Source: Saccoglossus kowalevskii
Taxonomy: Eukaryota; Hemichordata; Enteropneusta; Harrimaniidae
Reading direction: 5' to 3'
Length of the DNA stretch: 28,614 nt
Assembly: GCF_000003605.2 (NCBI RefSeq)
Contig: NW_003133373.1
Coordinates: forward strand, 94,868-123,481
Positions 1-25,549 of this stretch are shown piece by piece (the stretch's first letter is position 1; the number at the start of each line of letters is the position of its first letter). The notes under the pieces are model-generated. The model had not been told where the DNA came from, did no database searches, and saw only the letters and a program-made list of their open reading frames with translations. The position numbers and the translations under genes are program-made.

Positions 1-421
1 ATCAATTACTCTTTATAATACTCATGGTGAACTTTATTGGCCACTTAACCGTGAGCGGTAGATATCACTTTAATTTGCACTTCGAAGTGGTACAAAATTC
101 AATAAAGGGATAAAATAGGTTTAGTCAGAAAAATACGACACCTATGAGGACGTACGAAACACATATTCACATAATCACTGCTCCACAAAAGACGACTTTT
201 ATGAGGTAACACAAAACAAATGTTCATATGCCCAAAAGAGAGACCTCCGCTATGAAGACACAAAATACATATATTCATATAATCACAACTCTTCAACAAG
301 CAAAATAACCTGTACGAGAACACAGAATACAATCGCTAAGAAAAGACGCAATATGGGTATTCAATAATCACAGATCCTTTTTTTTATTTGTAGCATAATA
401 AATCGTCCATAAAGTGTGACT
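1..421. other. Upstream intergenic DNA of the DOMON gene
   Basis: No gene is supported here. The stretch holds the degenerate minisatellite listed separately and AT-rich sequence leading to the start codon at 422. I see no clear TATA box at a convincing distance, so the promoter of the DOMON gene cannot be placed. Confidence 0.5.
143..335. repeat. Degenerate minisatellite, about 3.3 copies of a 51-60 bp unit
   Basis: Units begin with TATGAGGA (143), TATGAGGT (200), TATGAAGA (251) and the partial TGTACGAGA (311). Each full unit carries an ACACA-AAACA run followed by ATATTCATAT-like sequence. Spacings are 57, 51 and 60 bp. The repetition shows in the minus-strand translation as recurring YMNIC / HMNIC / YVNMC blocks, so the 77-codon minus-strand open frame over this stretch is a by-product of the repeat and not a gene. 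Confidence 0.6.
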
Positions 422-5340: not shown

Positions 5341-6527
5341 CTATTGGATAAATGATGTGAGAAAACCGAGCATCACGATATACCACGACGATGTGCCGAA
5401 TACTGCCGACGACACTTCTTCCTTTGTGAAATGAAATGTTCCAAGAACAGCGTAATGATCTGATAAATCAGTTATGGTTTTATTTTCACCACATTCGTCA
5501 TCATAAGGAAAGCGATATCCTGCGAAAAGATCAGTTCCATCCATGCATACAGGAAAAGCGTCACTGTCGGTGTACTTCACAGCTTCTTGTGACGACTTCG
5601 TTGGAATGAGATGCGCAAAGCTATATAAAACGTAGTCATTCCATTTCGACGTGCCAGTGCTAGGGGCGTTTATGTCATTGTTCACTCTGTCTATAGTAAA
5701 CTTAATTTCTCCATGTATATCCGGAACCTCTGCTTCTAAAATAGCCAGAAGATCTGTCAACTCGTCTTCCCTCTCGTACAAATCAGTGCTAAAGTCTCCA
5801 GTATAAATTACTGGTTCGGAAAATGGGATACTTTGATTGATCATTAAGTTATGCATTTGCTGGACTTGCTTTCGTCTTACTTCGATGCCGCCATCATCTC
5901 GCTTCCCGGACTGTAGTTGAGTACCTAGCACGTGGTAGATCGCTGTCACACCGTCTACCGATTTCTCAATCTTTGCATAGATGGCCCCTTTAGCAGATAA
6001 CATATCTTCTGAGGCGAACACGCGATCCTCGTATACCGTTTCTTCCCATTTTACAATCGGCCACCGCGAGGCAATAAAGACTCCACCATTTTCTGGCTGC
6101 GGGATAATAGGGGTGAAGTCACCCACCGTATCTGTGAAATACTTAAACCCATAGGAATCGAGAATTTGTCGAAAAGAAGCCCCATTTGTTGGAAAGCAGC
6201 CTCCAATAAATGCTTCATTGAACGAAATCACATCGACATCAGCGTGCTCACGGAATACTTCAGTCAGCATTCTACAAGTTCGTTCTCGCTGTCCGCTTTG
6301 GTAATACAAATACGCCAGTTCCCATACGTTATACGTTAATACCTTGAATTCATCAACTGGTGTTGACGATGATATACTTAATTGGGGTACAGCACATCGC
6401 ACGTTTTTACCAGTATCAGTTTTGAAATGGCAATGGTCCCATATTTCGTAGTCCGCAGAACAAAGGTATTCCAAACCAAACATGTCACAGTACGCAGGAG
6501 TCAGTTCGCACTCGAGGGTGGCTCGAC
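5341..6527 (-). other. Gene III exon 5: C-terminal EEP domain, probably catalytically dead
   Basis: The fold markers are all present: YNVWEL (N502), SFNEAF (E540), PENGGVFIASRWPI, LSAKGAIYAKI and SDHYAV (D792, H793). Two active-site positions are altered. The GTH motif reads GTQ, with Gln639 encoded by CAA at 5917-5919. The metal/phosphate-binding GDxN motif reads GDFS, with Ser682 encoded by AGC at 5788-5790. WIDYV is also WNDYV. The reading frame is otherwise open and conserved, and the tail keeps a GPI-type hydrophobic end, so this looks like a maintained pseudoenzyme domain and not a decaying pseudogene. Confidence 0.8.
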
Positions 6528-9500
6528 CTGAGAGCAATAATAACGCAAATAAATAAACGAAAATAATTACACAATTTATATCGCGACACACAGTATAAGT
6601 GTACTGTATGATGCACATTATATACACAAAATGATTTCTTACAGAAACAACGCCACTCATTCGTGAATATTCTATGGTAGATACACTTACCCAACCATAC
6701 ACTTGGTCTATCGTCATAGCACGCGTCTGTAAGATAACAAGAACATTTCAATGACGCATAAGGTGACATGCCTGCCACAGACATGCATTGGATGTTAATT
6801 GGCTGGTTCACGTGACTGAATGAACAAATGAAAGCCAAATTGTGTCTCTCCATCAACGCAAATATTTCCATCACTTTAAGAAGCATATTGAACTGTACAG
6901 GTATGATATAGAAAGGGCCACTGCGTTGCATACTTTTCAACAGCATCTAATGACATGTTAAAAGTTAAATGTCGCGTAATTGTGATCTTTAAAGTAACCG
7001 GGGTAGAGTTGTTAGAATAGTTGTGGTTTTTTTACGATTGCTCTCAGTTTCTAACAATAATGACGTAACTATAAACATCATTCATAGATTGTGTGATAAT
7101 GATTTGGCACGTGAAGAAATTAACTTATCTAATCTGAGCATAACATTTATTAAACAATCACGGTATTTAGAGTACTTCATTTACCTGGTAAAGGTGATGG
7201 TGTCGGGTTCAATGTTGGTTGTCCAGGGTCTGTAAAATCGAAACGTCCTAATACGGCATAGTGATCTGACAGGTCAGTTATTGGCCACGACTCTCTGCAG
7301 AGTAATTCGTAGGGATACACGTGTCTAGACGTCAACACTGGGATACTACTCATGCATACTTCAAATGGTTCACTGTCTGTGTACTTAATAGACTGCTGAC
7401 TGGCGTTGTTAGGGAGGAGATGCTGGTTGCTATAAATGACGTAATCAATCCACTTAGACCAGCTTGTCGAATTAAGATGGATGACATCATTGTTCTGATT
7501 ATCATCAGTGATGTTTAAAGGCCCTACGGTGGGAGGCATATCGGCCTCTAGAATTTGTAGGACCTGATCCCATTGGTCAGGTGAAGTGTACATATCAGTA
7601 TTGAGATCACCGCCATAAATGACAGGCTCGTTCAAGGGTATATTTTGTTTTACCATAAATGAATGCATTTCTTTGGCCTGTAAGGCACGTGCTTCTGCAT
7701 ATTTATCCCCCTCGTGTGCTTGTAAGTGAGTACCAAGGATATGATAGTCCATTGTCTCATCATCAACACTCTTTCGAATTTTTGCATAAGCAGCCCCTCT
7801 AGAAGAAAGTGTGTCTGGTGATGAACGCGTTCGATGTTTGTAGATCCACTCTTCTTCTTCAAGGATAGGCCACCGAGAAGAAATGAAGATGCCGCCATTT
7901 TCTGGCTGTTTAGAAATGTCTCTTGTATACTCGCCTATTCTCGTCGTGTGGTGGTTGAAGCCATACTGATTTAACATCTGAACTATTGAAATCCCGTCAT
8001 CGGGGAAGCATCCACCCATGAAAATCTCATTCCAGATTATGACATCAATATCGCCATGGTGACGAAATATCTCTTGGGGGATACGACAGGTGCGCTCTCT
8101 TTGACCACTCTGATAATAAAGATAACGTAATTCCCAAATATTATATGCCAAGACATTGAGTGTAGTTGCTGGGGTAGGTTCCCAGATGTTCATGTGTGGT
8201 GACGCGCATAGCACATTTCTCGGGTCATCGGAGCCAGGTAAACCTGGACCAGACAAACAATCATCACCATCGTTGTAGTCAGCTTGACAGACAAAATCCA
8301 ATCCAAACATGGCACAGTAGTCTGGTGTTAAATCACACTCAGATGTCGCATAACCTGAATGTATGTGATACATAACATAATATTAATATAACATACATAG
8401 AGGATATCACAATCGTGACGTCATTTTCATTTAGCAAGGAACAAATATAAACGACTACACGTGCTTAAGAAATCTGAATTTATGTAGGTTTACTAATTTG
8501 TGTATACCATTTGCAGCTTTCAGAGGTTAAAACACCAAGTACATTAGTTTTTTTTTTAATTAGGAAACATGGTTTTCTCTTGGAGTCATCTCTTTGTTTA
8601 CATTTTCGGGGATATATTATAAACATAATTGCTAATTTTGAAGTCAAGACCGTCGTCAAAATATAATAAATACAAATACATTGTTTAGGGTTGCGGGTCC
8701 CAACAAGCCTCTATCTATTCCACAATTTCAGTTGCCCCTACGTTTATTATAACATGGATCCCTGTGTTTCGTCACCAGGACAACCACAGACAAAAAGGCA
8801 TACTCAGCTGCAGACTGTCTGTGTACTAATACTATTATGTCTTGGAATATCTACTTACCTAACCATACCTGAGGTCTGTCATCCGTGCAGTTGTCTGAAT
8901 GATAATACGTAATAATAAATAGGATATTAGAATTGCTATGTAGTTTTAATGCGACAATTTTATTTGTAAATACGTGTTTGAGATAAATCACCATGGACAT
9001 CCCATTTTCATTTTCCTTTTACTGCGAGATCCCGCGTGATGAGTGACATAGAACGTAAAAATAGGACAAAAAGGTGAAAAGATAAATGCCAGTTTAACAT
9101 ACATCAACTTTACTACAGTGACCTACATACAAACTCTAAAATATAAGATAGTGAGTTAACATAAGATAGCAATGTTTCGAGACGAGATAGGAGCCTATTT
9201 CACCTGTAACGTATCATGCTACATACACACCCCACCACCATAGACGAAGACATACATACATACACGTATCAAGAAAATGTGAATTGATATCTCACTGACA
9301 TTCTGTCAGTGTAAGGCCTGCTTATCGCAATTGAGATACAAACGGTTGAAAAGAGCTGGCTGGACTTTTTTGCTTTTGCAACAGAAACGAACAGTAGCAC
9401 GCGACCCATAATTAAATGATCTATACCTAAGTACTCTTGTTCTCGTTAGTATGCGTTAGGGGACGCAGTTGGTTTGTGTATATGTCGGTTAAATACATAC

Positions 9501-9564
9501 CTGCCAAACTCGCGTAAACTCGTAGAACAAGATGCCAGAATAGAACCGTGCTATATCTCTTCAT
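5341..9564 (-). CDS. Gene III: two-domain sphingomyelinase C-like GPI-type protein
   Basis: In transcript order the exons are 9501-9564 (signal peptide), 8859-8894 (mini-exon), 7185-8354 (EEP domain 1), 6691-6726 (mini-exon) and 5341-6527 (EEP domain 2 and tail). Together they give 2,493 nt, 830 aa. All introns are GT-AG and phase 1. Residues 1-21 form the signal peptide. Cys-rich modules cover about 24-83 and 424-480, and the EEP domains about 98-408 and 496-802. A Pro/Thr-rich linker spans 408-423. A hydrophobic tail after EEVSSAVFGTSS suggests a GPI anchor. The likely activity is extracellular phosphodiester cleavage of sphingomyelin-like lipids; this is inferred from the family. The second domain has lost key residues (see its own entry). 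An ATG-initiated frame reads from the intron at about 6946 into the second mini-exon, so an alternative start giving only domain 2 cannot be excluded, though it has no good signal peptide. Confidence 0.82.
6691..6726 (-). other. Gene III exon 4: 36-nt mini-exon of Cys-module 2
   Basis: The exon is flanked by a TTACAG acceptor and a GTAAGTG donor. It encodes DACYDDRPSVWL, with its first codon completed by the last G of exon 3 and its final G starting the codon finished by exon 5. The motif is shared with the five other mini-exons in this window. Confidence 0.8.
7185..8354 (-). other. Gene III exon 3: N-terminal EEP (sphingomyelinase C-like) domain, intact
   Basis: The exon encodes GYATSECDLTP..., five cysteines of module 1, then the catalytic domain. 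Expected catalytic residues are present: N105 in YNIWEL, E143 in WNEIF, H243 in GTHLQA, D283 and N285 in GGDLNTD, D397 and H398 in SDHYAV. Paired cysteines conserved in every copy (ERTCR with GGCF, and VCM with a Cys after YPY) suit a secreted, disulfide-bonded protein. The frame ends LNPTPSPLP at a GTAAATG donor. Reading on gives one Lys codon and a stop, so a transcript retaining this intron would encode a soluble one-domain form. Confidence 0.85.
8859..8894 (-). other. Gene III exon 2: 36-nt mini-exon of Cys-module 1
   Basis: It encodes DNCTDDRPQVWL between an ATTCAG acceptor and a GTAAGTA donor, with phase 1 at both ends. It joins the signal-peptide exon 9501-9564 (MKRYSTVLFWHLVLRVYASLA) to the domain 1 exon without a frame change. 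Confidence 0.8.
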
Positions 9565-10537
9565 TGTGTATTTCAGTGGAATAGGTATAAGTGTGGTGGG
9601 GGTCACAGAGACAGGTTGATTGCATTCAATGCGTTAACCAGATACCTAATGTGACATGACTAAGTTAATCATTATAGGTAGATAAGATACACATTTTCAC
9701 TACAACACAGGAGTTGTACTGACAACACGTTTTGGCGATCGATCGACATATTAACTGTGTATTAACCGTTGTTTAATATTACAGAGAAGGAGCGGGAGAA
9801 GGAATGTTTTGTAAACGTGGTGGAATACTTTTATTGGGTGTTATCATTACAAACTTTCAAAGGATTTTATGTTCACATTAAACATATACGAACTTCGACT
9901 TTATCAATTTTTAACGATAAATTACATAAAAATAATCCTCATATTATCAACAAACAATGAAAGCATATATAAGTGAAAAATCTGCAGTTAGTGTCATGAT
10001 GAATAATAAGTTGATTTTTGAAATTGTTGAAGAGATATTATTTACTGTATCTTTCAAACAATTTGGCAAAGGATTTTCCAGACTACTAGTATATTGAAAA
10101 ATGTCATTGTTACAAATATGTCACTAAGTAACTTTTCTAATGTTCCTTTAAATCCGTCACTGTACTGTGTCCATGGTTATCGTCTGTTCATGATGCTATT
10201 TATATTTTTTCAAACATGTTCAAAACTCCCAATTAATGTCAAAAAAACTGTGAAAACCATACTACAGGTACTGCAACGATGATTCATTGTCGTTCCGTGG
10301 GGATACACACTAAAACACATATTTGATCATGATTAACTTATATTTAACCGCTTTGTGAAACGCCTTCATCAGATAATGAATGGTACTTACAATGGGTTCT
10401 AAATCGCAACCTTCCACAACCTCATGTATTTGTTATGACAGTTATGGTTAACCACAATTGCATGTGCACTACTGTGAAAGACACCAGTCGCCTTCTGACA
10501 AGTGAAATGTAACGAGAATAGTGCATATTGATATGGA
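9565..10537. other. Intergenic DNA upstream of gene III
   Basis: Transcription of gene III should start in this stretch, but I see no convincing TATA box near the ATG at 9562-9564. Plus-strand open frames at 9769-9960 and 10094-10282 are AT-rich, short and without recognisable motifs; I do not call them genes. Confidence 0.45.
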
Positions 10538-10740
10538 AAATCAGTTATGTTTTATTTTCACCACATTCGTCATCATAAGTGAAACGACAAGTTCCATCCA
10601 TAAATACGGAAACAGAATCACTGTCGGTGTACTTTACATTTTCATGTGATGACTTTGTTGGAATGAGATACGCGTAGCGTAGCTGACACGCTCGATGCCG
10701 GATTTTTTTTTTGCTCTCTTTGTCGCCATCATCTCGCTAT
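10538..10740 (-). pseudogene. Eroded fragment of a C-terminal sphingomyelinase C-like domain
   Basis: From about 10538 to 10677 the sequence closely follows the 3' part of gene III exon 5 (around 5465-5620). Shared blocks include TTTTATTTTCACCACATTCG, AGTTCCATCCAT and TGTCGGTGTACTT. It has a one-base loss after TCAGTTATG and a deletion of some 20 bases. The match then jumps to CTCGATGCCG (10691) and GCCATCATCTCGCT (10724-10737), which correspond to about 5882-5902 of gene III, so some 260 bases are missing between them. No open frame survives. It is a relic of a further copy of the array. Confidence 0.75.
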
Positions 10741-10792
10741 TGAGATTATAAGCACAGATAACAGGCCCGCACAGAGGCACATTTTGTGTTTT

Positions 10793-10875
10793 AATGAATG
10801 AACGAACGAACAAATGAATGAATGAATGGATTAATGAATGAATATATGAAGGAATGAATGTATGAATGTGTGTGA
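10793..10875. repeat. Imperfect (GAAT)n microsatellite
   Basis: About 80 bp of GAAT/GAAC tetranucleotide repeats with scattered substitutions, lying between the pseudogene fragment and the assembly gap. The two minus-strand frames that translate it as IHSFIHS-type repeats are artefacts of the repeat and the gap. Confidence 0.8.
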
Positions 10876-10947
10876 ATCCCCTCTTTTTCGTCTCTGATAA
10901 ACCACAGTTGAGATGATGTGTCGACGTCGCCATTTCCTGGTTGCATA

Positions 10948-11588
10948 NNNNNNNNNNNNNNNNNNNNNNNNNNNNNNNNNNNNNNNNNNNNNNNNNNNNN
11001 NNNNNNNNNNNNNNNNNNNNNNNNNNNNNNNNNNNNNNNNNNNNNNNNNNNNNNNNNNNNNNNNNNNNNNNNNNNNNNNNNNNNNNNNNNNNNNNNNNNN
11101 NNNNNNNNNNNNNNNNNNNNNNNNNNNNNNNNNNNNNNNNNNNNNNNNNNNNNNNNNNNNNNNNNNNNNNNNNNNNNNNNNNNNNNNNNNNNNNNNNNNN
11201 NNNNNNNNNNNNNNNNNNNNNNNNNNNNNNNNNNNNNNNNNNNNNNNNNNNNNNNNNNNNNNNNNNNNNNNNNNNNNNNNNNNNNNNNNNNNNNNNNNNN
11301 NNNNNNNNNNNNNNNNNNNNNNNNNNNNNNNNNNNNNNNNNNNNNNNNNNNNNNNNNNNNNNNNNNNNNNNNNNNNNNNNNNNNNNNNNNNNNNNNNNNN
11401 NNNNNNNNNNNNNNNNNNNNNNNNNNNNNNNNNNNNNNNNNNNNNNNNNNNNNNNNNNNNNNNNNNNNNNNNNNNNNNNNNNNNNNNNNNNNNNNNNNNN
11501 NNNNNNNNNNNNNNNNNNNNNNNNNNNNNNNNNNNNNNNNNNNNNNNNNNNNNNNNNNNNNNNNNNNNNNNNNNNNNNNNNNNNNNNN
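10948..11588. other. Assembly gap of 641 N
   Basis: A run of unknown bases. It is flanked on both sides by pieces of sphingomyelinase C-like pseudogenes, so it may hide more of the same copy. Open frames drawn across it have no meaning. Confidence 0.99.
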
Positions 11589-11670
11589 CACCAAGAAGCA
11601 TTCACCCATGACAATCTCATTCCAAAATATAACATCACTATTGCCATAGTGACGAAAACTCTCTTTCAGA
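11589..11670 (-). pseudogene. Fragment of a sphingomyelinase C-like domain beside the gap
   Basis: Read on the minus strand this gives FRHYGNSDVIFWNEIVMGECF. This is closest to the FRHHGDIDVIIWNEIFMGGCF block of the gene III N-terminal domain, with the catalytic Glu still present. Upstream of it the similarity fades within about ten codons, before the intact genes' ERTCR block would appear, and downstream it enters the gap. It is more like an N-terminal-type domain, while the fragment at 10538 is C-terminal-type. The two could be remnants of one two-domain gene in the expected order. Confidence 0.7.
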
Positions 11671-12754
11671 ATATGATGAATCTACAAAAATAGCTCCGAG
11701 TAATTCATCATGTTTATTTACTAAATACTTGGTTAGTTACTAATCAGCATTTATTATTAGCTACTCACAAGATTGTCCCTGATTGGCTACACAACCCTAA
11801 CGTCTAACAATCAGACCAATCAGAGAACAGCTAGTTTGTTGCCAAGTTTGTTTGACCTATAAAATTCTCTATTGTATATATGCTTAGACTCAAGTGGGTA
11901 GCGCAGGCGTCAAAATAATAAGGTCAAAAGGAAAAGACATGGATGTCGGTCTTTTTGAAAGGAAGCACGGTGTCATGTCCTTAAAAAATACTGCATGATG
12001 CGTTGCGACGATCAAAATATGGCGATAAACGAGAGAGCATGGATTTGTACTAGCTTCTGTATTGGATATAATTGCACAAGCCGATGTTATAACAGGACGC
12101 CGTGGTCGCCTCCGGGGTGACGTCACGGCGATCTTTCTGATTGGTTAGTAGTTCTCAAATTTATTTCCAGCACTATATTCATCATACATACTTTAGTTTC
12201 CATTGATGATGTGATCGTGTAAAGCATGCATACACATAGACAGCCAACAACAAGAAACCCTGCGATCCTACCTTTGTTAACAACTATTCGAGTACACCCT
12301 TAAACAATCCTAATATTTGCAATGAATCGTATCATCGAGTGTTCCACATTTTTTCAGCTGCTAGTTCAGTTTGAATGAACTTTAATAGTGACCCTCTGAC
12401 CAGCTATAATAAGAGCCATCCATGATATCATAGATGTTGCTATTAACGATGAGATAAAGGTCTCAATTGTCGATGTACAACATAAAATGGCAATAACACT
12501 AAACTAATACCTAGTAGCATTTGACCCTATGCTGGGACTTAATATCCTCTACTCAAGTTCGTTTTAAATAAGTGTACCAAGCGGCATAAATGGCACACGA
12601 TCGAAACAAACATTTTTTTATAAAATTACATGCTCGTCACCTAATAAATTTGTGATTTTGAATTAAACTGATAACCGATATAAAAAATGCGATCAAATTA
12701 AACCATAATAAACTGCAATCCTATATAGGGTTGTGTTTTTAGTGAATTGAATTC
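11671..12754. other. Intergenic DNA with CCAAT/TATA promoter-like motifs, no gene
   Basis: The stretch has ATTGG at 11782, CCAAT at 11816 (in GACCAATCAGAG) and TATAAAA at 11858-11864 in plus orientation, the spacing of a core promoter. No credible open frame follows. A further ATTGG lies near 12140. Otherwise the DNA is AT-rich and featureless to me. Confidence 0.4.
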
Positions 12755-12761
12755 AAGGTAC

Positions 12762-12895
12762 CGTATTACCCCGGGCACGCGCCCCTCCCTGGGCAAGCGC
12801 CCACCCCCTGTTTTCACAAAAGTTACATGTTGGGGACATCCTCGGTTAAACGCCCAGGGTGATTTTTAGCCAAGAACGGGGTCAACAATAAAGTT
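12762..12895. mobile_element. GC-rich interspersed-repeat-like segment with GCGCCC motifs
   Basis: In contrast to the AT-rich surroundings, this segment starts ACCGTATTACCCCGGGC and carries repeated GCGCCC / AACGCCC blocks, ending near an AATAAA at 12888. Such sequences are typical of non-autonomous repeats in invertebrate genomes. I cannot assign a family, and its ends are uncertain. Confidence 0.35.
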
Positions 12896-12974
12896 TTATT
12901 TGTCAAAAACGAACGCGTTCGATTTATTTAAATAGTGTGTTTGTTACGGTAGTTCTCTTTTTGGAGTGTGTGGT

Positions 12975-12990
12975 GGCCCTGAAAAGGGCC
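12975..12990 (-). promoter_or_regulatory. Histone-type mRNA 3' stem-loop, orphan
   Basis: On the minus strand the sequence reads AACAAAAC then GGCCCTTTTCAGGGCC then ACCACAC. That is a 6-bp stem with a TTTC loop, a CAAA-rich 5' flank and an ACCA 3' flank, matching the replication-dependent histone 3' end. A purine-rich AAAAAGAGAA follows about 15 bases after the stem, where the U7-binding histone downstream element would be. No histone reading frame is visible in the 600 bases upstream on that strand. Confidence 0.6.
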
Positions 12991-15026
<2,036 letters not shown>

Positions 15027-16216
15027 TCACTTTATAACACCATATACAAACATACACAACATTATTTGAAACACATCAAGCACGAATGTGTTTCGTCTGC
15101 CAACAGAGGTAGTTTGGGAAAACGAAAATGTTCCGATAACAGCATAATGATTAGAGAGATCTGTTATTGTTTTATTCTCTCCACATCTTTCGTCATAGGG
15201 ATATAAATGGCGGGAGAATAACGCAAATTCATCCATGCACACCGTGTATGGATCGTCGGTGTAATTGAAAGCTTGCATACTCGAATCGTCTGGATTTAAG
15301 TGCGCGTAACTGTACATGACATAGTCAATCCACTTTGATGTTTCGTTACTGGGACCTATGATATCATTATGCTGTTTGTCATTTGTGTATTTGAGAGGGC
15401 CGACTACAGGGGGTACGGTTGCCTCTAATACTTCCAGTATCTTAACCAGTTCATCTTGTTCTGTGTACATGTCTGTGTTGTAGTCCCCAGCATAGATGAC
15501 TGGCTCGTTTTGGGGGATATCCTGAGACAGCATCAAATCATGCATTTGTTCAACTTGTGCGAGTCGTACTTCCGATCCGCCGTTACTTCTCTGGCCTGCC
15601 TGGAGATGGGTCCCCAGAACGTGATATTGCACCGTCTGTCCATCCACCGTTTTCTCAATCGCGGCATACATGGCACCTTTAGACGATAACATATCACTAG
15701 ATATTATGACATAGTCCTCGTAAATGGTTTCTTCCCACGCTGTGATTGGCCAGCGTGAGGCGATGAAGACACCGCCATTTTCTGGCTGTGGCAGCAACGA
15801 AGTGTTCTCACCAACTGTGCCAGTGAAATAACGAAAGCCGTAATATTTGAGAATATCGCGGAATGACGCGCCGTGCATGTGGAAGCATCCGCCCATGAAC
15901 GCTTCATTGAAGACTATCACGTCGACGTCCCCGTTGTGTGTCATTATATTTGGCAGCATTCTGCACGTGCGTTCATATTGTCCAGTTTGGTAAATCAGAT
16001 AACGCAGTCCCCATATATTGTAGTTCATGACCTTGAAGGTCAATAGCGGAGTGGGTTGTGTGACTGCTACCTCAGGGATGGCACACAACACATTTTGTCC
16101 AGTTCCCGATAACGAATAACATCTGTCCCAGACTTCAAAATCAGATGAGCATATAAACTCCATACCGAACATACGGCAATAATCAGGGGTAAGGTTGCAT
16201 TCTGCTGTGACACGAC
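15027..16216 (-). other. Gene II exon 5: C-terminal EEP domain with SDH changed to SNH
   Basis: The catalytic positions N507, E545, H644 (GTHLQA), D685 and N687 (GDYNTD) and H797 are present. The Asp before the final catalytic His is Asn796, encoded by AAT (15150-15152), one base from GAT. In EEP enzymes this Asp belongs to the catalytic His-Asp arrangement, so activity should be reduced or lost. The tail after FSFSQTTSVGRRNT is hydrophobic (FVLDVFQIMLCMFVYGVI), consistent with a GPI signal or a short membrane anchor. Confidence 0.82.
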
Positions 16217-18588
16217 CTGCAAATCGAACAGTCTCTTGTTTACTCTATATATTTACGCCTGTACTATCAGCGCGTGCTATGAAATTCACTTCTAGCTAAT
16301 TACACAAATAACTTATGCAAATATCGTCATTTGTAATAACCTATAGCTCCCTCTAGTGATAGAACGCTTCTGTGACGTAATCGATTGCCAATTTGGTTGT
16401 GTCGTCGATTGTCATTTAGAATAAAGTAAAATGTCTCAAAAACATAATTGATGAACCACTGCATAGAAGAGGTTTAGGGGCGCGATTTCTATTAGTATTA
16501 ATATATATATAGTGTAATAGCGCATGTTCAAAACGCAAAGACTCATGGGTAGACGCTTGTTTGTAAACAATGACACGCTATGGCCATCTTACGCATGCGC
16601 AGGTGACGACTCCCCCGCTTTAATAATAGCTGCACAATCAAAAACATAAAAGTACTCACCTAACCAAACACTTGGTCTATCACCAACAATGCATTCAGCT
16701 GAAAGAAGTGATGAAATTAATATTTGTAATCAATACATTACAAAGTTATAACATGTTTATGACAGACTTGTTTTCGGAAAAAATCACTATTTTTGTTACA
16801 TCTTAAGGCTAAATAACGATTTATAGTGAAATGAAAATATGAATATATAGTACTCGAGAACTTTAAAATTGTTAGTAATTACTTTCATTGTACCTGGCAG
16901 CGTTGGAAATCCTGAGTCAGATGTCGGCATTACACTAGATGAGAAGTCTAATCTTCCTAATACAGCGTAGTGATCTGAAAGGTCGGTGATATTCTTAGAG
17001 CTCCTACACGAAGACTGGTATGGGTACGCATGCCCAGGCTGGAGTATCCTTCCATCCATGCATACCCAAAACGGTTGCTCGTCAACAAATTTGATGGCCT
17101 CCTGACTGGCGTTACATGGCATAAGGTGGTCCTCACTATACAAGACATAATCGATCCACAAAGAAGGCGTGGTCAACCCTTCATCGAAGACGTCATTATG
17201 TTGATAATCGTAGGTAACATTTATAGGGCCGGTGATTTGAGGCATGCGGGCACGTAATATCTCCAGTATCTGTTCCCATCTGTCACCATAATAATCAGAG
17301 TTGAAATCACCAGCGTAAATAACAGGGTCGCTTTTCAGTATATTCTGCTCAAGCATAAATGCATGGATTTCTTTTGCTTGTAGGGCTCGAATCTCGTCGC
17401 CATCTTCGTTTTCTGTTGACTGCATGTGGGTTCCGAACACATGGTAGTACTTCGTTTCATCGTTTACAGATTTTTCTATTTTAGCGTACATGACACCCTT
17501 GGCGTTTAGAGCATCGGATGTTAATCGTAGGGCATTCCTGAACACGTGTTCCTGTTCTGCGACAATTGGCCACCGGGAAGCTATAAATACACCTCCATTC
17601 TCGAACCTTCCCATTGACGGGAGTTTTCCTACACCCAGTGTTTTGGTGTAGTACGGAAAACCATATTGCTCTAATATCTGGCGCATAGAGATGCCGTCCT
17701 GAGAAAAACAGCCACCCATGTGACCCTCGTTGAAAACTATTGCATCAACATCGCCATAATATCGAAATATATGTTGTGGGATGCGACAAGTGCGTTCAAT
17801 CTGACCGTTCTGTTGTCCGATGAAGAGACGCAGTTCCCATATATTATAAGTTATAACATTTATTGTAGTAGCGGGAGTTGCTTGCCAAGTAGAACCACTC
17901 GGCGATGCACACAGAACATTCTGAAGTTCCGACAGAGGGAGTGGGCCAGGACGCCCGCCAGGTTCTTCCAAACACGAATCGCCATCTTTGTAAACATCGC
18001 TACAGACGTAATCTAATGAAAACAGGTCGCAATACTCCTCAGACAGATCACACTCTGATGTCGCATATCCTAACAAGAAAATAATGATAACGTTAATTGA
18101 TATTGAATATATATATATTCAATCTCACACTTCTACACACACGCCGTTTTACTAGCAAACATAGAAGAAGCTTATCTTGAATATATAACGAAAATAGTAC
18201 TGAGAGTTATATTTAGCCGTCATCAAAGAAAACCAACCGAGCCATACTTGTGGACGACTGTCTTCACAATCATCTGCAAATTAAAAATATCAACAAGTTA
18301 ATGTTAATATTCGCAAGATGTACTAACTTGTATTTATAGTACATCGAACATCTATCATAATTTAAAACAGTAGCCCACCATATCACACATCTTATCAGAT
18401 TACAAATTACAGGGTGAAATATAGCTGCTCCATACATGTCTAGGGTGGTCGAAATTGATCACATTTATATTTAAATCCAGTTGCTAAGAAACCGAGTATA
18501 ACTATCAATGTACCGTACCTGAATGTGAGGCGTGAATGATGAACGCGGCGACAACGAAGATGGCGGTCTGGACACCGATGTTAGCCAT
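15027..18588 (-). CDS. Gene II: two-domain sphingomyelinase C-like GPI-type protein
   Basis: In transcript order the exons are 18519-18588 (signal peptide MANIGVQTAIFVVAAFIIHASHS), 18238-18273, 16894-18069, 16660-16698 and 15027-16216. They total 2,511 nt, 836 aa. The four introns are GT-AG and phase 1, and short (168-443 bp). Cys-rich modules cover about 24-89 and 428-485, and the EEP domains about 104-413 and 501-806. A Ser/Pro linker spans 413-427, and a hydrophobic C-terminal segment lies at about 817-836. The intron between domain 1 and the second mini-exon is only 195 bp and holds no start exon, which is the strongest evidence that both domains belong to one protein. Extracellular sphingomyelin-type phosphodiesterase activity is inferred. 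Domain 2 has an altered SDH motif. Confidence 0.85.
16660..16698 (-). other. Gene II exon 4: 39-nt mini-exon of Cys-module 2
   Basis: It encodes AECIVGDRPSVWL, one residue longer than the other five mini-exons, between a TTTCAG acceptor and a GTGAGTA donor. Phase 1 is kept at both ends, so the extra codon is in frame. Confidence 0.8.
16894..18069 (-). other. Gene II exon 3: N-terminal EEP (sphingomyelinase C-like) domain, intact
   Basis: N111 (YNIWEL), E150 (FNEGH), H250 (GTHMQS), D290 and N292 (GDFNSD), D401 and H402 (SDHYAV) are all present. A Pro/Gly-rich loop (EEPGGRPGPLPLS) lengthens the Cys-module before NVLCASP, a feature also seen in domain 1 of gene III but not in any C-terminal domain. 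The exon ends FPTLP at a GTACAATG donor. Reading past that donor gives about 37 further codons to a stop, but the spliced reading is preferred because the phase matches the next mini-exon. Confidence 0.85.
18102..18123. repeat. 22-bp perfect AT-rich palindrome in gene II intron 2
   Basis: ATTGAATAT...ATATTCAAT is its own reverse complement over 22 bases and lies 33 bases before the exon 3 acceptor on the transcribed strand. It could form a hairpin in the pre-mRNA near the polypyrimidine region. It may equally be just an expanded TA repeat. Confidence 0.7.
18238..18273 (-). other. Gene II exon 2: 36-nt mini-exon of Cys-module 1
   Basis: It encodes DDCEDSRPQVWL between a TTGCAG acceptor and a GTTGGTT donor. 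The donor is weaker than those of the other mini-exons. The signal-peptide exon 18519-18588 ends with the G that completes the first Asp codon. Confidence 0.78.
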
Positions 18589-20846
18589 GTTGACAGTCTT
18601 ACATATCGTCCGTATCAATAATATAAATACGTATCTACACCAGGGGTCGGACTCAGTCTGTCGTACTATGCCCCTTCTGGGAGAAAGTTCGATAAACTTT
18701 TCCAAAGGTCACCACATTAATGATTATTGGATACAGTGACTGTACACATTTAAAGTTTACTTTTGAAACAAAAGGTCAATCAATGCATCTATAATAAGAG
18801 GTAGGAATATCATGCCCTGTCCATGCATTGAATATGTGATATATACTCATTTAACTCAAGGTCTAAGGGCATGTATATGTTATTCTTATCAAGATATCAG
18901 TAAAACTTTTCTACTAGGACGGGCTTTATAACTCACAAGTGTTAATGTCAATTAAGTTTGTTAACAACGTGATTAAACCACTTTCAAAAAAATGGCTTTC
19001 AATAAACGCGGTCATCTGTGATTAATAACATTAACATTTATATGTCATCTATTATTATCAAGTAATGAACCAAAAACACGATGATATCACCGACAAATAC
19101 AGTCATGAGAAGTGCGGAGTTTCGTAGTTCACGTTTAATGCCGCAGAATGTTGAACAATTTAATATTCACACCGTGATATGCACGAGAAGAAAGAATTCA
19201 ACCGAGTTGTTAGCGTGTAAAAAACACTTATATTTCAGTTACGTGTAAACCATTTTTTTTTTCAAAAGACACATGTAAATAGTTGAAAAAATGGCCTGAA
19301 TTGTTCAACTTGAGATAAAACATTAGTTTGAATGTTGAATAAACAATCTGTGCAAACATAAGGAAATAATGTATACTACTATTAATACAATTCTGCTCGT
19401 CTATTCATCATTGACCGCAGTACATTCTGGCCATTTAAAGAATTAGGACGACGCCGATTATTTTGTGTTACAAATAAACACTATCATAATTGGAAGTGCA
19501 TTATACACGTACTTATAGAACATTTACGAGTAATCGGTATTTGAAAACAAGTTGATGGAAAATTTTCTATTTAAAAAAAAAACGGTTTTCTTAACGTGAA
19601 AATCACGGATGGTTTGTTGTTAAAACGAATGGTATTTTAGGGAACATTGGACAGGGCTAGGTCACACACATTCTCATTGTATGTGTGTGCATTGACCTTG
19701 ATCAATAACTTGTTATCGTTTATAACAGGACTGCACGTGGTAACGATCAACCAATGAGAACACGGCGTTTCAATAATGGCAGCGCATGGTAGCAAAATGC
19801 CCTACATAATACATGTAGTACATAACTGCTCAATAACAATGTCACCCTTTGCAAGTGTATGGTATTATAATTGCGATATGAAAAAAAAATGCTACTGGGA
19901 TTGGACTAAACTGCATATATATTTACACAGTGCGTTGCCAAGGAGATTATCAATGCTGTCATACATTACAGATAGAGCACATCAATGTGTCAATCATCAT
20001 TCGAAAAATAGTCATACATCGAAGACGGTAAACATAATTTGGATTTACCAGACAAACGTTGAGGAAATAATTCCAAAAATGCTTTTCATGTGATTCAGAC
20101 GTTCTCTAAAAGCACGCTACTACACAAATCATACAACACCATCTGAAAGTTTTGATATAGACGATTACGGTAAGTGCATTTGCCGTATTAATGTGTCTAA
20201 GAAATTATTTTACGGCAAATTTCGTAAGTTAAAGAAACCTAAAGATGCGTTTACGTTTTGCAAAGCTTTCGGTTTCACACTCATCCCAGAGTGTTGTTTT
20301 TTTGTGAGCAGTGTACATTTCCTTCTTATGTCGTAGTTTCCAAATAACAGCCTTCAAACCTACACAGCAAAATCTCGACAGCACGTCCTTAGTTGTTCAT
20401 CGCAGCAAAAACCAAAGGCAGATAAAGAAAAAAAAACAAAACAAAACACGAGACATCTGATACGAACGACTCGTGCAATTCACAGACCATTTGTGTGACT
20501 GAAAGTGCCACCCTATACGCCTATATCTAAGCTTTAGGATGCTATATAGTTTGTTAGCAGCATGCTTAGTAACTTTCAGAGAATGTTTAAAAACATAATT
20601 AATGTTTGGTGAGGTTACCATGCGACGTAGACAGCTTGTGTAAAGTACATAAATCATTGCTAACATGTTACATGATATAATGTGTACAACGAATGTTTTG
20701 GAGTATCTAGCCATACGATAAATTGATATATATGTTAATCATGTGTAATGTTCTTGAACTTGTAAAACATATTGAAAAGCAAAAAGTTATAATGTTTCCT
20801 CCAAATGAGTAGTAACTTTTATAAAATGCTAGTTGATTTATTGATT
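18589..20846. other. Intergenic DNA between genes I and II
   Basis: This contains the gene II promoter side and the gene I 3' flank. A minus-strand AATAAA (20837-20842) lies only four bases beyond the gene I stop; it is a candidate poly(A) signal but unusually close. Open frames at 19776-20093 (plus) and 20397-20714 (minus), 105 codons each, show no recognisable motif and are not called. A TGACCTTGA nuclear-receptor-like half site is at 19693. Confidence 0.45.
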
Positions 20847-22048
20847 TTAGGTCAAAAATGCGTAAAGGAATATTAGGATCAAAATGTGGAATTTCGTAGC
20901 ACCGTATATTGATGTTGATGACACGCCTTCTAAATAATCGAATCGACCCAAAACTGCGTAGTGATCTGACAGATCGGTAATTGTCTGGGTAATTTCACAA
21001 TTACTTTGATATGGGTACACGTGAGAACCAAATAATCTGAGTTCGTGAATACAAACGGTAAACGGTTCTTCATCTACATATTTGATAGCTTCCTGAGTGG
21101 CAGCAACTGGCTCGCGATGGGAGATGCTGTACATCACGTAATCAAGCCAGTAACCCGGGACCCAATACTCGCTAACACCGCCAACATAGTCAACTGTGTG
21201 TATATCGTTGTAAACGCTGTCCGATGTGACGTTGATATACCCAATTCTGTCTGGTAATCGCGATTCGAGTACCTTGAGGGATGCTTCCAACCACTCGGAC
21301 TCTGTGTAGAAATCGATGTTGAAGTCCCCACCATAGATAACAGGTTCCTCTGCTGGAATGTCTTGCTTCAACTTCAGTTGATGCATCTCGATTGTTTGGT
21401 TCAGTCTCACCTCGTCGCCATCATGGGAGGAACCCGACTGTAGATGTGTACCGAACACATGATAGATCATAGTTTCGCCATTCACGGTCTTTTCAATTTT
21501 AGCATAGACTGCACCTTTAGCTGCTATCGCATCAGCAGTAGGCCTAGCTTTGTTCTCGTACACTGTATCATCCCACTGAATTATCGGCCACCTCGAGGCT
21601 ATAAAAACACCACCGTTTTCCATCGGCCAGGATAAATTAACCCCGACAGTGCCAGTGTAGTAAGGGAATCCATAATACTCCATAATTTGTCTGAAAGAAG
21701 CACCATGTCTTGGAAAGCAACCACCCATGAACGCTTCATTGAAGATTATCACGTCGATATCCCCGTGTTGAGAGAATATATGTGTTAACATTCTGCAAGT
21801 GCGTTCTATTTGTCCACACTGGTATACAAGATACCTTAACTCATAAATGTTGTAAGACATAACCTTGAACGTGGTGGCAGGTGTTGGGGCATAGACAGTC
21901 ACACGCGGCACAGCACATAGTACGTTCTTCTCGGTGCTTATTTGCTTGTAGCATACATCCGAAACTTGGTAGTCGGCACTACAAACGTATTCCAGACCAA
22001 ACATACTACAGTGTTCGGGCGTAAGATCACACTCACTCGTCGCAATCC
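20847..22048 (-). other. Gene I exon 5: C-terminal EEP domain, intact
   Basis: N527 (YNIYEL), E565 (FNEAF), H662 (GTHLQS), D702 and N704 (GDFNID), D822 and H823 (SDHYAV) are all present. A short insertion around 745-760 (VGGVSEYWVPGY) precedes WLDYV and is absent from the other five domains. The first codons, GIATSECDLTPEHC, come from a CACAG acceptor at the exon's 5' end. Confidence 0.85.
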
Positions 22049-25000
22049 CTGTGAAAAGAGCAGCGAAGCATTACTCAGCCTAGCACGGCTTTCTGAGCAC
22101 AAATGAGTCAATCATATGTAGTTACGTAGTGACATTGCATCCATGAATATACAATATTGAACCAATCAGTACACACCTTCACTTTGCAGCATTGTTGTTT
22201 TGGTACACTGTTAGAAAATGCATACAACGTAAAGACCGAATATACGTGCACATATATAGTATCACTTACCTAGCCATACTTGTGGTCTGTCGTCTTTACA
22301 CTCATCTGCAAAAAATAACTAAGAGAATAAATGACCATATCGACTCGGAGGAAATTCACGTCAGGAGGGTGTCGGAGGTTATCGTTCTAGTACTGATTTC
22401 ACGTGTTTCAGATATGTATTGCCATGTATACATGTACAACTGACTCATTGCTCAGTCCATTTCTAGACACAGATACATATACACTATACCTCAGATTGTT
22501 TTATAGCTACGTTGTAAGAATCTGCGAGTTAGTGTCGATATGAATCTTTATGGGATGCTCAGTATCATTAAGGTCACAGTGGATGCAACTCATAATGCAT
22601 TACGACATACGAAATAACTTTTGAATACATTTTTTTGTATTAAGTTATTAAATTCGAAATGCAAACCGCGTATTTTATGCATTATCTTGTTACACGCTGG
22701 TGTGTTTTTTCAATAGAAAACTAAACCTACCTGGAGGATTATAAGTCGGATTCGGGATTGGTTCAATAGGTGATGAGAAATCAAACGTTCCTAGCACTGC
22801 ATAATGATCAGACATAATGATCTAGTACTGATTTCACGTGTTTCAGATATGTATTGCCATGTATACATGTACAACTGACTCATTGCTCAGTCCATTTCTA
22901 GACACAGATACATATACACTATATCTCAGATTGTTTTATAGCTACGTTGTAAGAATCTGCGAGTTAGTGTCGATATGAATCTTTATGGGATGCTCAGTAT
23001 CATTAAGGTCACAGTGGATGCAACTCATAATGCATTACGACATACGAAATAACTTTTGAATACATTTTTTTGTATTAAGTTATTAAATTCGAAATGCAAA
23101 CCGCGTATTTTATGCATTATCGTGTTACACGCTGGTGTGTTTTTTCAATAGAAAACTAAACCTACCTGGAGGATTATAAGTCGGATTCGGGATTGGTTCA
23201 ATAGGTGATGAGAAATCAAACGTTCCTAGCACTGCATAATGATCAGACAGATCATTGATGTTCCAAGCATCGAGACATTCATCTTGGTAGGGATATCTAT
23301 GTTGTCCTAGCGTGATTGGTAACACATTGTCAGAGGGTTGTATTGGCAAAGCTGCCATGCACACGGGAAACTTTTCATCCGCAAGAAACTTGACCGCCTC
23401 CTGGGTTGCATTACCGGGCATCAAATGTTGATTACTATATAAGACGTAATCTATCCATGTTCCACCAGTTGTTCTATCACTTTCCTTAATCACGTCATTG
23501 TTTTCGAAGTCTAACGTGACATTAATATCACCCACAATCTTTGGATCATCAGCTTCAATTATCGCCAAAATCTGATTCCACCGACCACCGGGGTCGTTCA
23601 TTGGTGTATTCAGATCACCTGCGTATATAACAGGCTCGTCCCAGGGAATCTGCTGATCCTGCATAAACAGCTGCAGCTCTTTGGCCTGTAATATTCTTGT
23701 ACTTTGGGCTTCATCAATGTCCGTGTATGTGGCTTGGAGATGAGTCCCAAAGACATGATATCTTTGACTTATCCCGTCTACATTTTTCTCAATTTCAGCG
23801 TAACTTACTCCTTTTGCTGAGAGCATGTCCACAGATGGGAGAAGCGTGTTTTTGTATATCCATTCAGATTCTCTTAAGATGGGCCATCGTGACGCCACAA
23901 AAACTCCCCCATTTTCCGCTTTCCTCGGAAAGGAACGCGTATCAACACCGACTGTTTTGGTGAAATATTTAAAACCATACTGATTCAACATGTTGCGAAA
24001 TGAACAGTGCCTCCCACTCGGCACAGGGAGGGGGACCGGAACAGGAAGTTCAATCGGTAATTCAATCTCCGCAAAACAGCCTCCCATGAAAACTTCATTA
24101 AACACGATGATATCAACGTCACCATGCAGGTCGAAGATCGCCTGCGGGATGCGGCATGTTCTTTCATGTTGGCCCTTTTGATTAAATAGATAATGTAATT
24201 CCCACACATTATACGTCATCACTTTCAATGTCGATGCTTTGGTTGGTGTCCACATGGTTTTATTAGGAGAATGACAAAGAACATTCACACCTTTTCCAAA
24301 ACAGCTGTGTAACCGACCGTAGTCTTTAGAGCATCCGAAAAGAAGACCAAACCTATGGCAGTAAGTTTCATCTAAGTCACATTCAGTAGTAGCATCACCT
24401 TAAGAGATAGATATTAAATTTCAATAAACCAGGAGAACTAACGATATTCCCAAATTCAGTCAGAACATTCATGTGTCAAAAAACTGAAAGGAAAGTATTT
24501 TGACTGATATTTAAGTGAACTAACTGACAAGGCGAACGCGCGCCTAGACGTTCACTGATTGGTGCATTATGCGTAAATTCAACAGTAGGCGTTTTCATAT
24601 GATTAAAAATCAGACGGCATAGATCGGCGGGTACATTTCGGCGAAACGACCAAAATTTGATGTAGATATCCTGAACTTTTAGCCTTTATGTCATGTACAG
24701 TAAGCAGTGACAAGTTGGTGTCCATCTATTTGAACTGAGAGCAAACCGATGAACTTGTCACGTCTATACAATCTCTAAACATTGGATTTAACTTCGCGTT
24801 GCACTGTCTATGGGGTTGCCTTGACGCCAGGTAATCAGTAAAATCTTCCTGGTGCAGATAAGATAACGGTTCAAAAAAGATCGTGCAACACGATAAACAT
24901 TATGACGCTCAAATAATGTTGACATGTGTTTTAACCTGAGTATTGCTTGCAAACGCCATTATATAGCGAGCACATACATACACTTCATACAATGAATCGA

Positions 25001-25549
25001 CTCGTTAACGTTAACGAATACGACTGAACTTATTGACGAATGTTCCGTTACTCACCTAACCACACGTGTAGGATGTCTTCATTACACTCGTCTAAAACAA
25101 ATCACATATCTTGTTAGTATATAAATGAATTGATAGTTAACCAGAGGTCAAGAGATCCACAGAGGCACGTTAAAGATTGATATACACTCAATAGTGTGTT
25201 TGTATCTCAATGTATCTAGGCGTAATGCAGTCAAGAAAAGCATATCCCCATTTCTCTCCGAAACCCGGCCGAGTATGTCAAATCAGTGTTTTCTCAAATC
25301 GAACCCACCTACACCCGTATTGGTGCCCTCAAATACGAAAACAACCATTGAGGGAGAAGAGACAGAAAAAAATGTCATTTATCAAATTACAGTTTCTTCA
25401 GTTTCGATCAATTTCCCGAGCACCACATGGCATTAGTTCAATTTCATGCCTGTATTGCGCAATAAGTACTCACCACATGTATGCATTCCCAGCGCACATA
25501 CCACAACAAGACACGCGAGAACATTTGATAAATTAGCTTCCATTGTCAT
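20847..25549 (-). CDS. Gene I: two-domain sphingomyelinase C-like GPI-type protein, both domains intact
   Basis: In transcript order the exons are 25474-25549 (signal peptide), 25056-25091, 23166-24398, 22270-22305 and 20847-22048, giving 2,583 nt and 860 aa. All four introns are GT-AG and phase 1. The signal exon encodes MEANLSNVLACLVVVCALGMHTC, preceded in frame by Met-Thr. I used the upstream ATG (25547-25549), but 25541-25543 is equally possible. Cys-rich modules cover about 28-79 and 451-505, and the EEP domains about 95-433 and 521-833. A Pro-rich linker (PIEPIPNPTYNPP) spans 436-448. The hydrophobic tail HILILIFLYAFLT after a Ser/Thr-rich stretch fits a GPI signal. This is the only one of the three genes in which both domains keep all catalytic residues. 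The intron between the domains carries a recent tandem duplication. Confidence 0.85.
22270..22305 (-). other. Gene I exon 4: 36-nt mini-exon of Cys-module 2
   Basis: It encodes DECKDDRPQVWL between a TTGCAG acceptor and a GTAAGTG donor, phase 1 on both sides. No signal-peptide-like exon lies between it and the upstream domain exon ending at 23166. Confidence 0.8.
22386..23249. repeat. Direct tandem duplication, two 429-bp copies about 99% identical
   Basis: Copy 1 is 22386-22814 and copy 2 is 22821-23249, offset by 435 bp with six bases (TAATGA) between them. I see only two differences (C/T at 22489 versus 22924, and T/G in TTATCTTG versus TTATCGTG). Copy 2 includes the last 84 bases of gene I exon 3. 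Copy 1 therefore carries a stranded duplicate of that exon end (22731-22814) with its own 5' splice donor inside intron 3. Confidence 0.9.
23166..24398 (-). other. Gene I exon 3: N-terminal EEP (sphingomyelinase C-like) domain with Pro-Val loop
   Basis: N101 (YNVWEL), E139 (FNEVF), H257 (GTHLQA), D299 and N301 (GDLNTP), D423 and H424 (SDHYAV) are present. Immediately after GGCF an insertion at about 147-166 (EIELPIELPVPVPLPVP) replaces a loop of 3-4 residues found in the other domains. The coding part starts upstream of any ATG: a CTTAAG acceptor opens GDATTECDLDETYC. The exon ends NPTYNPP at a GTAGGTTT donor. Confidence 0.85.
25056..25091 (-). other. Gene I exon 2: 36-nt mini-exon of Cys-module 1
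   Basis: It encodes DECNEDILHVWL, the most divergent of the six mini-exons (ILHVWLG where the others have RPQVWLG or RPSVWLG). It is flanked by a TTTTAG acceptor and a GTGAGTA donor, phase 1 on both sides. Confidence 0.75.

What the first reader, a model, noticed from the sequence alone, without database searches (positions are those of the whole stretch)
5341..25549. Three tandem genes each encode a double-headed sphingomyelinase C-like ectoenzyme
Six complete EEP domain exons look like six genes. Good signal-peptide exons were found only upstream of the odd domains (25474-25549, 18519-18588, 9501-9564), and hydrophobic GPI-type ends occur only on the even domains. The odd domain exons end with a phase-1 donor after a Pro-rich stretch, and the next mini-exon has a phase-1 acceptor that completes the codon. 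Known bacterial sphingomyelinase C and animal nSMase1-type proteins have a single catalytic domain. A secreted, membrane-tethered tandem-domain form is unusual and I do not know a described equivalent.
Basis: partly seen in the sequence, partly recalled or inferred. Interest (0 to 1): 0.78.

Follow-up and report, generated by a model that had tools for sequence, protein, structure and literature searches.

The report
Two-domain sphingomyelinase-like animal ectoenzyme array
This animal DNA holds a row of genes that each appear to fuse two copies of a bacterial-type sphingomyelinase domain into one secreted, probably membrane-anchored protein, with the second copy having lost key catalytic residues in some of them.

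Summary
Three minus-strand genes (A 25549-20847, B 18588-15027, C 9564-5341) each splice in silico from five phase-1 exons into an 830-860 aa protein without internal stops: signal peptide, Cys-rich module, sphingomyelinase-C-like (SMase C-like) EEP domain, Pro-rich linker, second module and domain, hydrophobic GPI-type tail. Trees support the fusion: odd and even domains split, within-gene pairs are rejected as clades, and odd and even subtrees mirror each other. The array extends beyond the window: at least seven genes on the contig, a decayed remnant, and two further odd/even pairs of the same build. Single-domain paralogues lie outside the tandem clade, suggesting one internal duplication, then whole-gene duplications.

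"Double-headed" needs correction. Of the three window genes only A keeps the SMase catalytic residues in both heads; B's second head has D295N, C's has H151Q and N197S. Substrate, GPI anchoring and transcription are inferred; there were no RNA data, and gene B has two weak splice donors. My paper searches found no described equivalent. New variant of a known kind. A single-domain Mariprofundus protein shares part of the Cys module, hinting at cross-kingdom transfer.

The parts
25474..25549 (-). Gene A exon 1: signal peptide, phase-1 donor gtgagt
   Evidence: MTMEANLSNVLACLVVVCALGMHTC, max 9-residue hydropathy 3.47
25056..25091 (-). Gene A exon 2: mini-exon, Cys module start (DECNEDILHVWL)
   Evidence: 36 nt, phase 1-1
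23166..24398 (-). Gene A exon 3: domain D1 (odd), catalytic set intact, Pro-rich end, donor gtaggt
22270..22305 (-). Gene A exon 4: mini-exon (DECKDDRPQVWL)
20847..22048 (-). Gene A exon 5: domain D2 (even), catalytic set intact, hydrophobic tail; AATAAA at 20842
18519..18588 (-). Gene B exon 1: signal peptide
18238..18273 (-). Gene B exon 2: mini-exon; weak donor gttggt
   Evidence: donor -2.58 bits
16894..18069 (-). Gene B exon 3: domain D3 (odd), catalytic set intact; weak donor gtacaa
16660..16698 (-). Gene B exon 4: mini-exon (AECIVGDRPSVWL)
15027..16216 (-). Gene B exon 5: domain D4 (even), D295N, hydrophobic tail
9501..9564 (-). Gene C exon 1: signal peptide
   Evidence: hydropathy 1.98
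8859..8894 (-). Gene C exon 2: mini-exon (DNCTDDRPQVWL)
7185..8354 (-). Gene C exon 3: domain D5 (odd), catalytic set intact, donor gtaaat
6691..6726 (-). Gene C exon 4: mini-exon (DACYDDRPSVWL)
5341..6527 (-). Gene C exon 5: domain D6 (even), H151Q and N197S, hydrophobic tail
11595..11675 (-). Decayed remnant, odd-type fragment, 86% nt identity to D5 over 71 bp; next to an N gap
10500..10676 (-). Decayed remnant, even-type C-terminal fragment, 76% nt identity to D6 over 190 columns, carries a stop
22386..23249 (.). 429-bp tandem duplication, 99.5% identical (22386-22814 and 22821-23249), copying the end of exon 3 of gene A with its donor into the next intron

Best explanation
Each of the three loci is one gene for a secreted two-domain SMase C-like ectoenzyme. 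Shown from sequence: a phase 1-1 block (mini-exon plus one intronless domain exon of about 1.2 kb) occurs twice per gene and joins in frame; signal exons precede only the first block; hydrophobic tails follow only the second; odd and even domains are separate, co-duplicated lineages. Inferred: in a single-domain ancestor like the paralogues still in this genome, the symmetric block was duplicated, and the first copy kept a Pro-rich linker and donor instead of the tail. The protein enters the ER, is disulfide-bonded through its Cys-rich modules, and is GPI-anchored through the second domain. The outer (first) head hydrolyses the phosphodiester of outer-leaflet choline-, ethanolamine- or aminoethylphosphonate-type sphingolipids by the Mg2+ and His151/His296 mechanism of SMase C. 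The anchor-proximal head is a second active site in some copies (A and at least one upstream gene). In B and C it has become a partly or wholly non-catalytic partner, perhaps for positioning or substrate binding. A digestive or defensive role at an epithelial surface is the likeliest use, but that is a guess.
For: In-frame splice models for 3 of 3 genes. Odd|even split 100/98 on six domains and 98/96 on the catalytic core alone, with D1+D2, D3+D4 and D5+D6 each rejected as a clade (AU p 0.018, 0.0004, 0.005). Congruent quartets (D1,odd138)|(D3,D5) 95/94 and (D2,even136)|(D4,D6) 100/100. Two further pairs on the contig with the same mini-exon before the even domain and the same phase-1 CAG|gtaatt donor, 5.1 bits, reached by 0.4% of 6,676 GTs scored. 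No hydrophobic phase-1 start exon in any of five odd-to-even introns, whereas likely ones were found for both C1001 single-domain paralogues. Tandem domains form one clade apart from single-domain paralogues (84/96 core; 98/99 with module). Catalytic residues N16, E53, H151, D195, N197, D295, H296 present in D1, D2, D3, D5 (numbering counted on the alignments). pN 0.28-0.37 against saturated pS 0.80-0.90 among the six window domains; dN/dS 0.14-0.15 in the two unsaturated pairs.
Against: No transcript data. Gene B needs two weak donors. The intron of gene C has an AATAAA at 7151 that could end a one-domain transcript. The start-exon scan gives about 0.7 chance candidates for the 2,490 bp scanned, so their absence is only mildly informative. 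The start exon of the upstream gene with odd138 was not convincingly found, and the mini-exon pattern missed those of odd138 and odd154. With the long Mariprofundus row added to the six domains, support for the odd|even split fell to 70/55. Rooted with paralogues, the odd domains are not resolved as a clade. GPI anchoring rests on hydropathy only, and D4's tail has charged residues. No structure was obtained.
Confidence: 0.82

Rival explanations
1. Two products per locus: the full two-domain GPI form and a soluble one-domain form made by intron retention or polyadenylation after the odd domain.
For: Each odd exon of the window runs into an early stop if its donor is not used. An AATAAA lies about 34 bases past the donor in gene C. 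Gene B's donor is weak. Other paralogues look naturally single-domain, and some lack a tail.
Against: No AATAAA or ATTAAA in the A and B introns. One AATAAA in a 458-bp AT-rich intron is near chance by my estimate. The even domains still need the joined form for secretion.
Confidence: 0.3
2. Six separate single-domain genes, the even ones with undetected distant signal exons.
For: Single-domain paralogues with their own likely signal exons exist in the genome. No transcript evidence excludes it.
Against: Even mini-exons have phase-1 acceptors with a phase-1 donor just upstream at the odd end. The intron of gene B is only 195 bp. No hydrophobic start exon in 5 of 5 introns, though chance would give only about 0.7. 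Odd ends lack tails and even starts lack signals in complementary fashion. Odd and even trees are congruent.
Confidence: 0.08
3. The enzymes act on another phosphodiester, for example phosphorylcholine or phosphoethanolamine on glycans or ceramide aminoethylphosphonate, rather than sphingomyelin.
For: EEP enzymes clustering next to sphingomyelinases remove such groups from GlcNAc (PMC10704324; abstract and passages). The domains score 87-113 bits against a 248-bit cut-off for the sphingomyelinase equivalog model.
Against: Best PDB hits are SMase C enzymes, for D1, D3 and D6 searched singly and for the six-domain profile. The SMase catalytic set is kept in four of the six window domains.
Confidence: 0.35
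4. Decaying or misassembled array with no functional product.
For: N gaps flank and interrupt the array. A decayed remnant and a 99.5% identical 429-bp duplication lie inside it. Two even heads lost catalytic residues.
Against: Ten tandem domain exons are open over about 390-430 codons each, with pN far below pS. Splice phases are conserved.
Confidence: 0.05

Closest known systems
Bacterial sphingomyelinase C (TIGR03395; B. cereus 2ddr/2uyr, L. ivanovii 1zwx, S. aureus beta-toxin 3i5v)
   Same: Catalytic domain along nearly its whole length; catalytic and central-metal residues in D1, D2, D3, D5
   Different: Two domains per protein, added Cys-rich modules, GPI-type tail, edge-site D100 replaced by N in 6 of 6, degenerate second heads in B and C; below the equivalog cut-off
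Single-domain Mariprofundus protein L001:2863-4074
   Same: 32% identity over 401 aa to D1, including part of the N-terminal Cys module and the C-terminal Cys pair
   Different: One domain, no mini-exon motif (VWLG), no hydrophobic tail (sequence)
Apparently single-domain paralogues in the same genome (C1001, C4614, C3419, C4170, C2923)
   Same: Same domain; both C1001 copies also have the mini-exon and a likely signal exon; a hydrophobic tail on one C1001 and both C4614 copies
   Different: One domain per gene as far as read
Animal neutral sphingomyelinases (SMPD2/SMPD3 type; human SMPD3 5uvg)
   Same: EEP fold, weak profile match E 3e-6
   Different: Much weaker similarity; one catalytic domain (recalled)
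Tandem-domain brush-border ectoenzymes such as intestinal phospholipase B1, sucrase-isomaltase, somatic ACE (recalled, not tested)
   Same: Works like: duplicated catalytic domains on one anchored ectoenzyme; inactive repeats in PLB1
   Different: Unrelated folds and substrates

Membership tests
Bacterial-type sphingomyelinase C (TIGR03395) | Profile similarity over the catalytic domain | tested here: met
   E 1.7e-24 to 1.4e-32 for 6 of 6 domains
Bacterial-type sphingomyelinase C (TIGR03395) | Curated equivalog cut-off (248.2 bits) | tested here: not met
   87-113 bits, 6 of 6 below
Bacterial-type sphingomyelinase C (TIGR03395) | Catalytic and central metal residues N16, E53, H151, D195, N197, D295, H296 | tested here: inconclusive
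   Met in D1, D2, D3, D5 (4 of 6 in window); not met in D4 (D295N) and D6 (H151Q, N197S)
Bacterial-type sphingomyelinase C (TIGR03395) | Single catalytic domain | tested here: not met
   Two per gene model, 3 of 3
Bacterial-type sphingomyelinase C (TIGR03395) | Sphingomyelin hydrolysis | not testable with these tools
   Needs an enzyme assay
Bacterial-type sphingomyelinase C (TIGR03395) | Membrane-binding aromatic beta-hairpin | not tested
   No structure could be predicted (job reported interrupted; tool switched off)
EEP superfamily (PF03372) | Score above gathering threshold 24.5 bits | tested here: inconclusive
   4 of 6 above (D1 34.5, D2 28.9, D4 27.2, D3 24.6); D6 17.7, D5 no match at E 0.1; all six match SMase C, itself an EEP family
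Animal neutral sphingomyelinase SMPD3 | Closest similarity to SMPD3 rather than SMase C | tested here: not met
   5uvg 29.6 bits against 126 bits for 2uyr
GPI-anchored proteins | Signal peptide plus C-terminal hydrophobic signal | tested here: inconclusive
   Hydropathy only; no GPI predictor or experiment

The most novel reading that the evidence does not exclude
An animal lineage carries a bacterial-type sphingomyelinase shared with a marine bacterium by gene transfer, gave it a Cys-rich module and membrane tail, duplicated the exon block into a two-headed ectoenzyme, and expanded it into an array in which the membrane-proximal head is turning from a second active site into a non-catalytic partner. 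This would be a family of SMase/pseudo-SMase fusions not described before.
Probability: 0.35. Interest if true: 0.66.

Novelty: new variant of a known kind. Interest (0 to 1): 0.52.

Why it matters
If expressed as modelled, this would be a tandem-domain, probably membrane-tethered SMase C-like enzyme of animals, an architecture I did not find in print. Copies with two intact heads and copies with a degenerate second head stand side by side, so the role of a second head can be compared within one gene family. It would also point to a surface enzyme that could act on the unusual sphingolipids of invertebrates.

Tried and rejected
Tried without result. A viral-contig scan gave no relative. Pfam gave no family at E 0.1 for the plus-strand ORF at 413-883, and only one sub-threshold hit among five other window ORFs. 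COX1 from a mitochondrial contig of the assembly reads with TGA as Trp and ATA as Met, as in most animals, but I could not settle the phylum.

Considered and rejected. Six independent genes: complementary signal and tail, splice phase and congruent trees argue against it. Pseudogene array: frames are long and constrained. Fusion by chance donors: the donors of A, C and the two upstream pairs score 5.1-6.1 bits, reached by 0.4% or fewer of the 6,676 GTs scored, though gene B's donor scores 0.5, reached by 6.5%, and the end of odd154 offers only CTG|gtattc, which was not scored. Glycera venom sphingomyelinases as a precedent: they are of the acid type (PMC4202326, passages).

Rows left out of trees: the partial odd145 and odd128, two C4170 copies, and the Bermanella relative L002 (its file was not found by the script, and I did not add it later).

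Literature searches: (10 of 10), of which up to 20 rows each were seen of up to 752 papers. Papers seen: PMC9710629 (abstract, section 15, passages), PMC10704324 (abstract, outline with the opening text, passages), PMC4202326 (passages), PMC1525001 (passages); the rest as listings only.
Full report
Setting. The window is part of a 183.8-kb contig (C2529:94868-123481) of a 572-Mb assembly. A contig of the assembly carries a mitochondrial COX1 that reads with TGA as Trp and ATA as Met, so the source is most likely an animal; the phylum is not settled.

Observation. Six domain exons lie on the minus strand, each an uninterrupted frame of about 1.2 kb. All six match the bacterial SMase C model, and a profile of the six matches B. 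cereus SMase (E 1e-35), L. ivanovii SMase (2e-30), S. aureus beta-toxin (1e-28) and, weakly, human SMPD3 (3e-6). Three signal-peptide exons and six phase 1-1 mini-exons were recovered. Joining five exons per locus gives proteins of 860, 836 and 830 aa without internal stops, and all 12 introns are GT-AG. Two donors of gene B are poor. The even ends carry hydrophobic tails; the odd ends run through a Pro-rich stretch into a donor.

Fusion. Four lines support one gene per pair. First, splice phase: each odd donor is phase 1 and each even mini-exon acceptor completes the codon. Second, complementarity: a scan of the three odd-to-even introns (860, 195, 458 bp) for ATG start exons with a phase-1 G|GT donor found 1, 0 and 0 candidates, none hydrophobic, and 0 and 0 in two stretches covering further introns outside the window. 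The same kind of scan recovers the signal exons of D1 and D3; D5's falls just under the cut of 2.0 at 1.98. Upstream of odd128 and odd154 it gives four hydrophobic candidates each, of which 132016-131953 and 159177-159117 on the contig resemble each other and are the likely ones, the second with a poor donor; nothing convincing was found for odd138. For the two C1001 single-domain paralogues, with the G before GT no longer required, one candidate came up for the first (375873-375930), and a similar one (386735-386792, donor CAC|gtgagt) stands among those listed for the second. The background rate is 59 in 208,164 bp, about 0.7 expected for the 2,490 bp scanned, so the absence alone is weak evidence. 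Third, trees: odd and even domains split 100/98 on whole domains and 98/96 on the core; each within-gene pair as a clade is rejected (AU p 0.018, 0.0004, 0.005); the odd and even quartets of the four complete pairs are congruent. Against this, with the long Mariprofundus row added to the six domains the split had support of only 70/55. Fourth, further pairs: the contig holds more odd and even domains in the same order. Counting odd domains (154.2, 145.0, 138.6 and 128.1 kb, D1, D3, D5), there are at least seven genes; both heads are seen in five (one with a partial odd head). The other two run into N gaps of 7,260 and 4,123 bp. The mini-exon pattern found 9 on the contig stretch read, three of them outside the window (before even144, even136 and odd128); those of odd138 and odd154 were not found.

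Origin. Genome searches with D5 (25 matches) and with the C3419 paralogue (26 matches) show other members on C1001 (2), C4614 (2), C3419, C4170 and C2923. The copies whose frames I read (two on C1001, two on C4614, one each on C3419, C4170 and C2923) each end without a second domain attached. Two C1001 copies also have a mini-exon. In an 18-row tree the ten tandem domains form one clade (84/96 on the core; 98/99 with the Cys module) and the even domains a clade within it (98/99, 100/100); the odd domains are not resolved as a clade once rooted, and the Mariprofundus branch is long. The simplest history is duplication of the symmetric mini-exon plus domain block, then whole-gene duplications. 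A remnant in the window (11675-11595 like D5, 10676-10500 like D6, with a stop and an N gap between) looks like a decayed further pair.

Catalysis. Numbering was counted on the alignments printed. His151 and His296 as acid-base residues and Glu53 as Mg ligand are the titles of papers seen in the reference list of PMC9710629. D1, D2, D3 and D5 keep N16, E53, H151, D195, N197, D295 and H296. D4 has D295N. D6 has H151Q and N197S, visible directly against 2uyr. Of the upstream domains, odd154, odd138, even136 and even144 keep the set; for even136 and even144 the E53 and H151 motifs were read by eye from the sequences, because the motif patterns missed them. So two intact heads are seen in gene A and in the gene with odd138 and even136; the intact even144 has a partial odd partner. 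D6 and D4 are not on notably longer branches than the other domains, and pN stays far below pS, so they look constrained rather than decaying; with silent sites saturated, no dN/dS could be had for the window domains.

Mechanism. Inferred: a secreted, disulfide-rich, GPI-anchored ectoenzyme; the outer head hydrolyses a choline-, ethanolamine- or aminoethylphosphonate-type sphingolipid by the SMase C mechanism; the anchor-proximal head is a second active site in some copies and a non-catalytic partner in others. Substrate is open: EEP enzymes near sphingomyelinases can act on phosphorylcholine and phosphoethanolamine on GlcNAc (PMC10704324, abstract and passages).

Comparison with bacteria. One genome-contig scan, with two short peptide patterns, gave two relatives. 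The Mariprofundus one (L001) matches D1 at 32% over 401 aa and shares part of the Cys module; its neighbours on the contig look bacterial by eye. In a sample of 398 genomes from its phylum, 10 had a match to it, 5 including itself at E below 1e-20, one match per genome; of the other nine matches one begins at residue 59, inside the Cys part, and the rest at 79 or later. This is compatible with transfer between a bacterium and an animal in either direction; it is not tested further.

Literature. Ten searches showed, in the rows listed, no paper on a protein with two SMase C domains or a GPI-anchored animal SMase C. Most subscription papers are not held, and no eukaryotic protein database was available.

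Verdict. The structure is real and probably functional. It is a new variant of a known enzyme kind; the catalytic 'double head' is intact in only one of the three window genes.

Noticed in passing
L001:2863-4074 (Mariprofundus MAG): Single-domain bacterial homologue that shares part of the Cys module; matches D1 at 32% over 401 aa (E 6e-57), while the best other bacterial match in a 398-genome sample covers residues 84-361 of it (E 1e-29). Possible cross-kingdom transfer.
   Followed up: partly
window 22386-23249: 429-bp tandem duplication, 99.5% identical, places a copy of the end of exon 3 of gene A with its donor in the following intron; recent or an assembly artefact.
   Followed up: partly
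L033 (C3419:284242-288324), minus strand: A single-domain paralogue preceded by a frame with what look like extra Cys-rich units ending in the KVWLG mini-exon motif; the module itself may multiply.
   Followed up: no
L046:1903-2077 (C1001:374303-374477): Weak D1-like fragment (query residues 180-231, E 3e-5) upstream of the first C1001 paralogue; perhaps a degenerate copy.
   Followed up: no
window 413-700, plus strand: ORF that begins like a secreted Cys-containing protein on the strand opposite to the array; no Pfam match.
   Followed up: no
C4170:991761-1011549: Three SMase-like copies in tandem on one strand, at least one with internal stops; the first ends right after the domain, without a tail.
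   Followed up: no
G000:C4830:13523-14863: Mitochondrial COX1 that uses no AGA or AGG codon over the 447 codons read.
   Followed up: no
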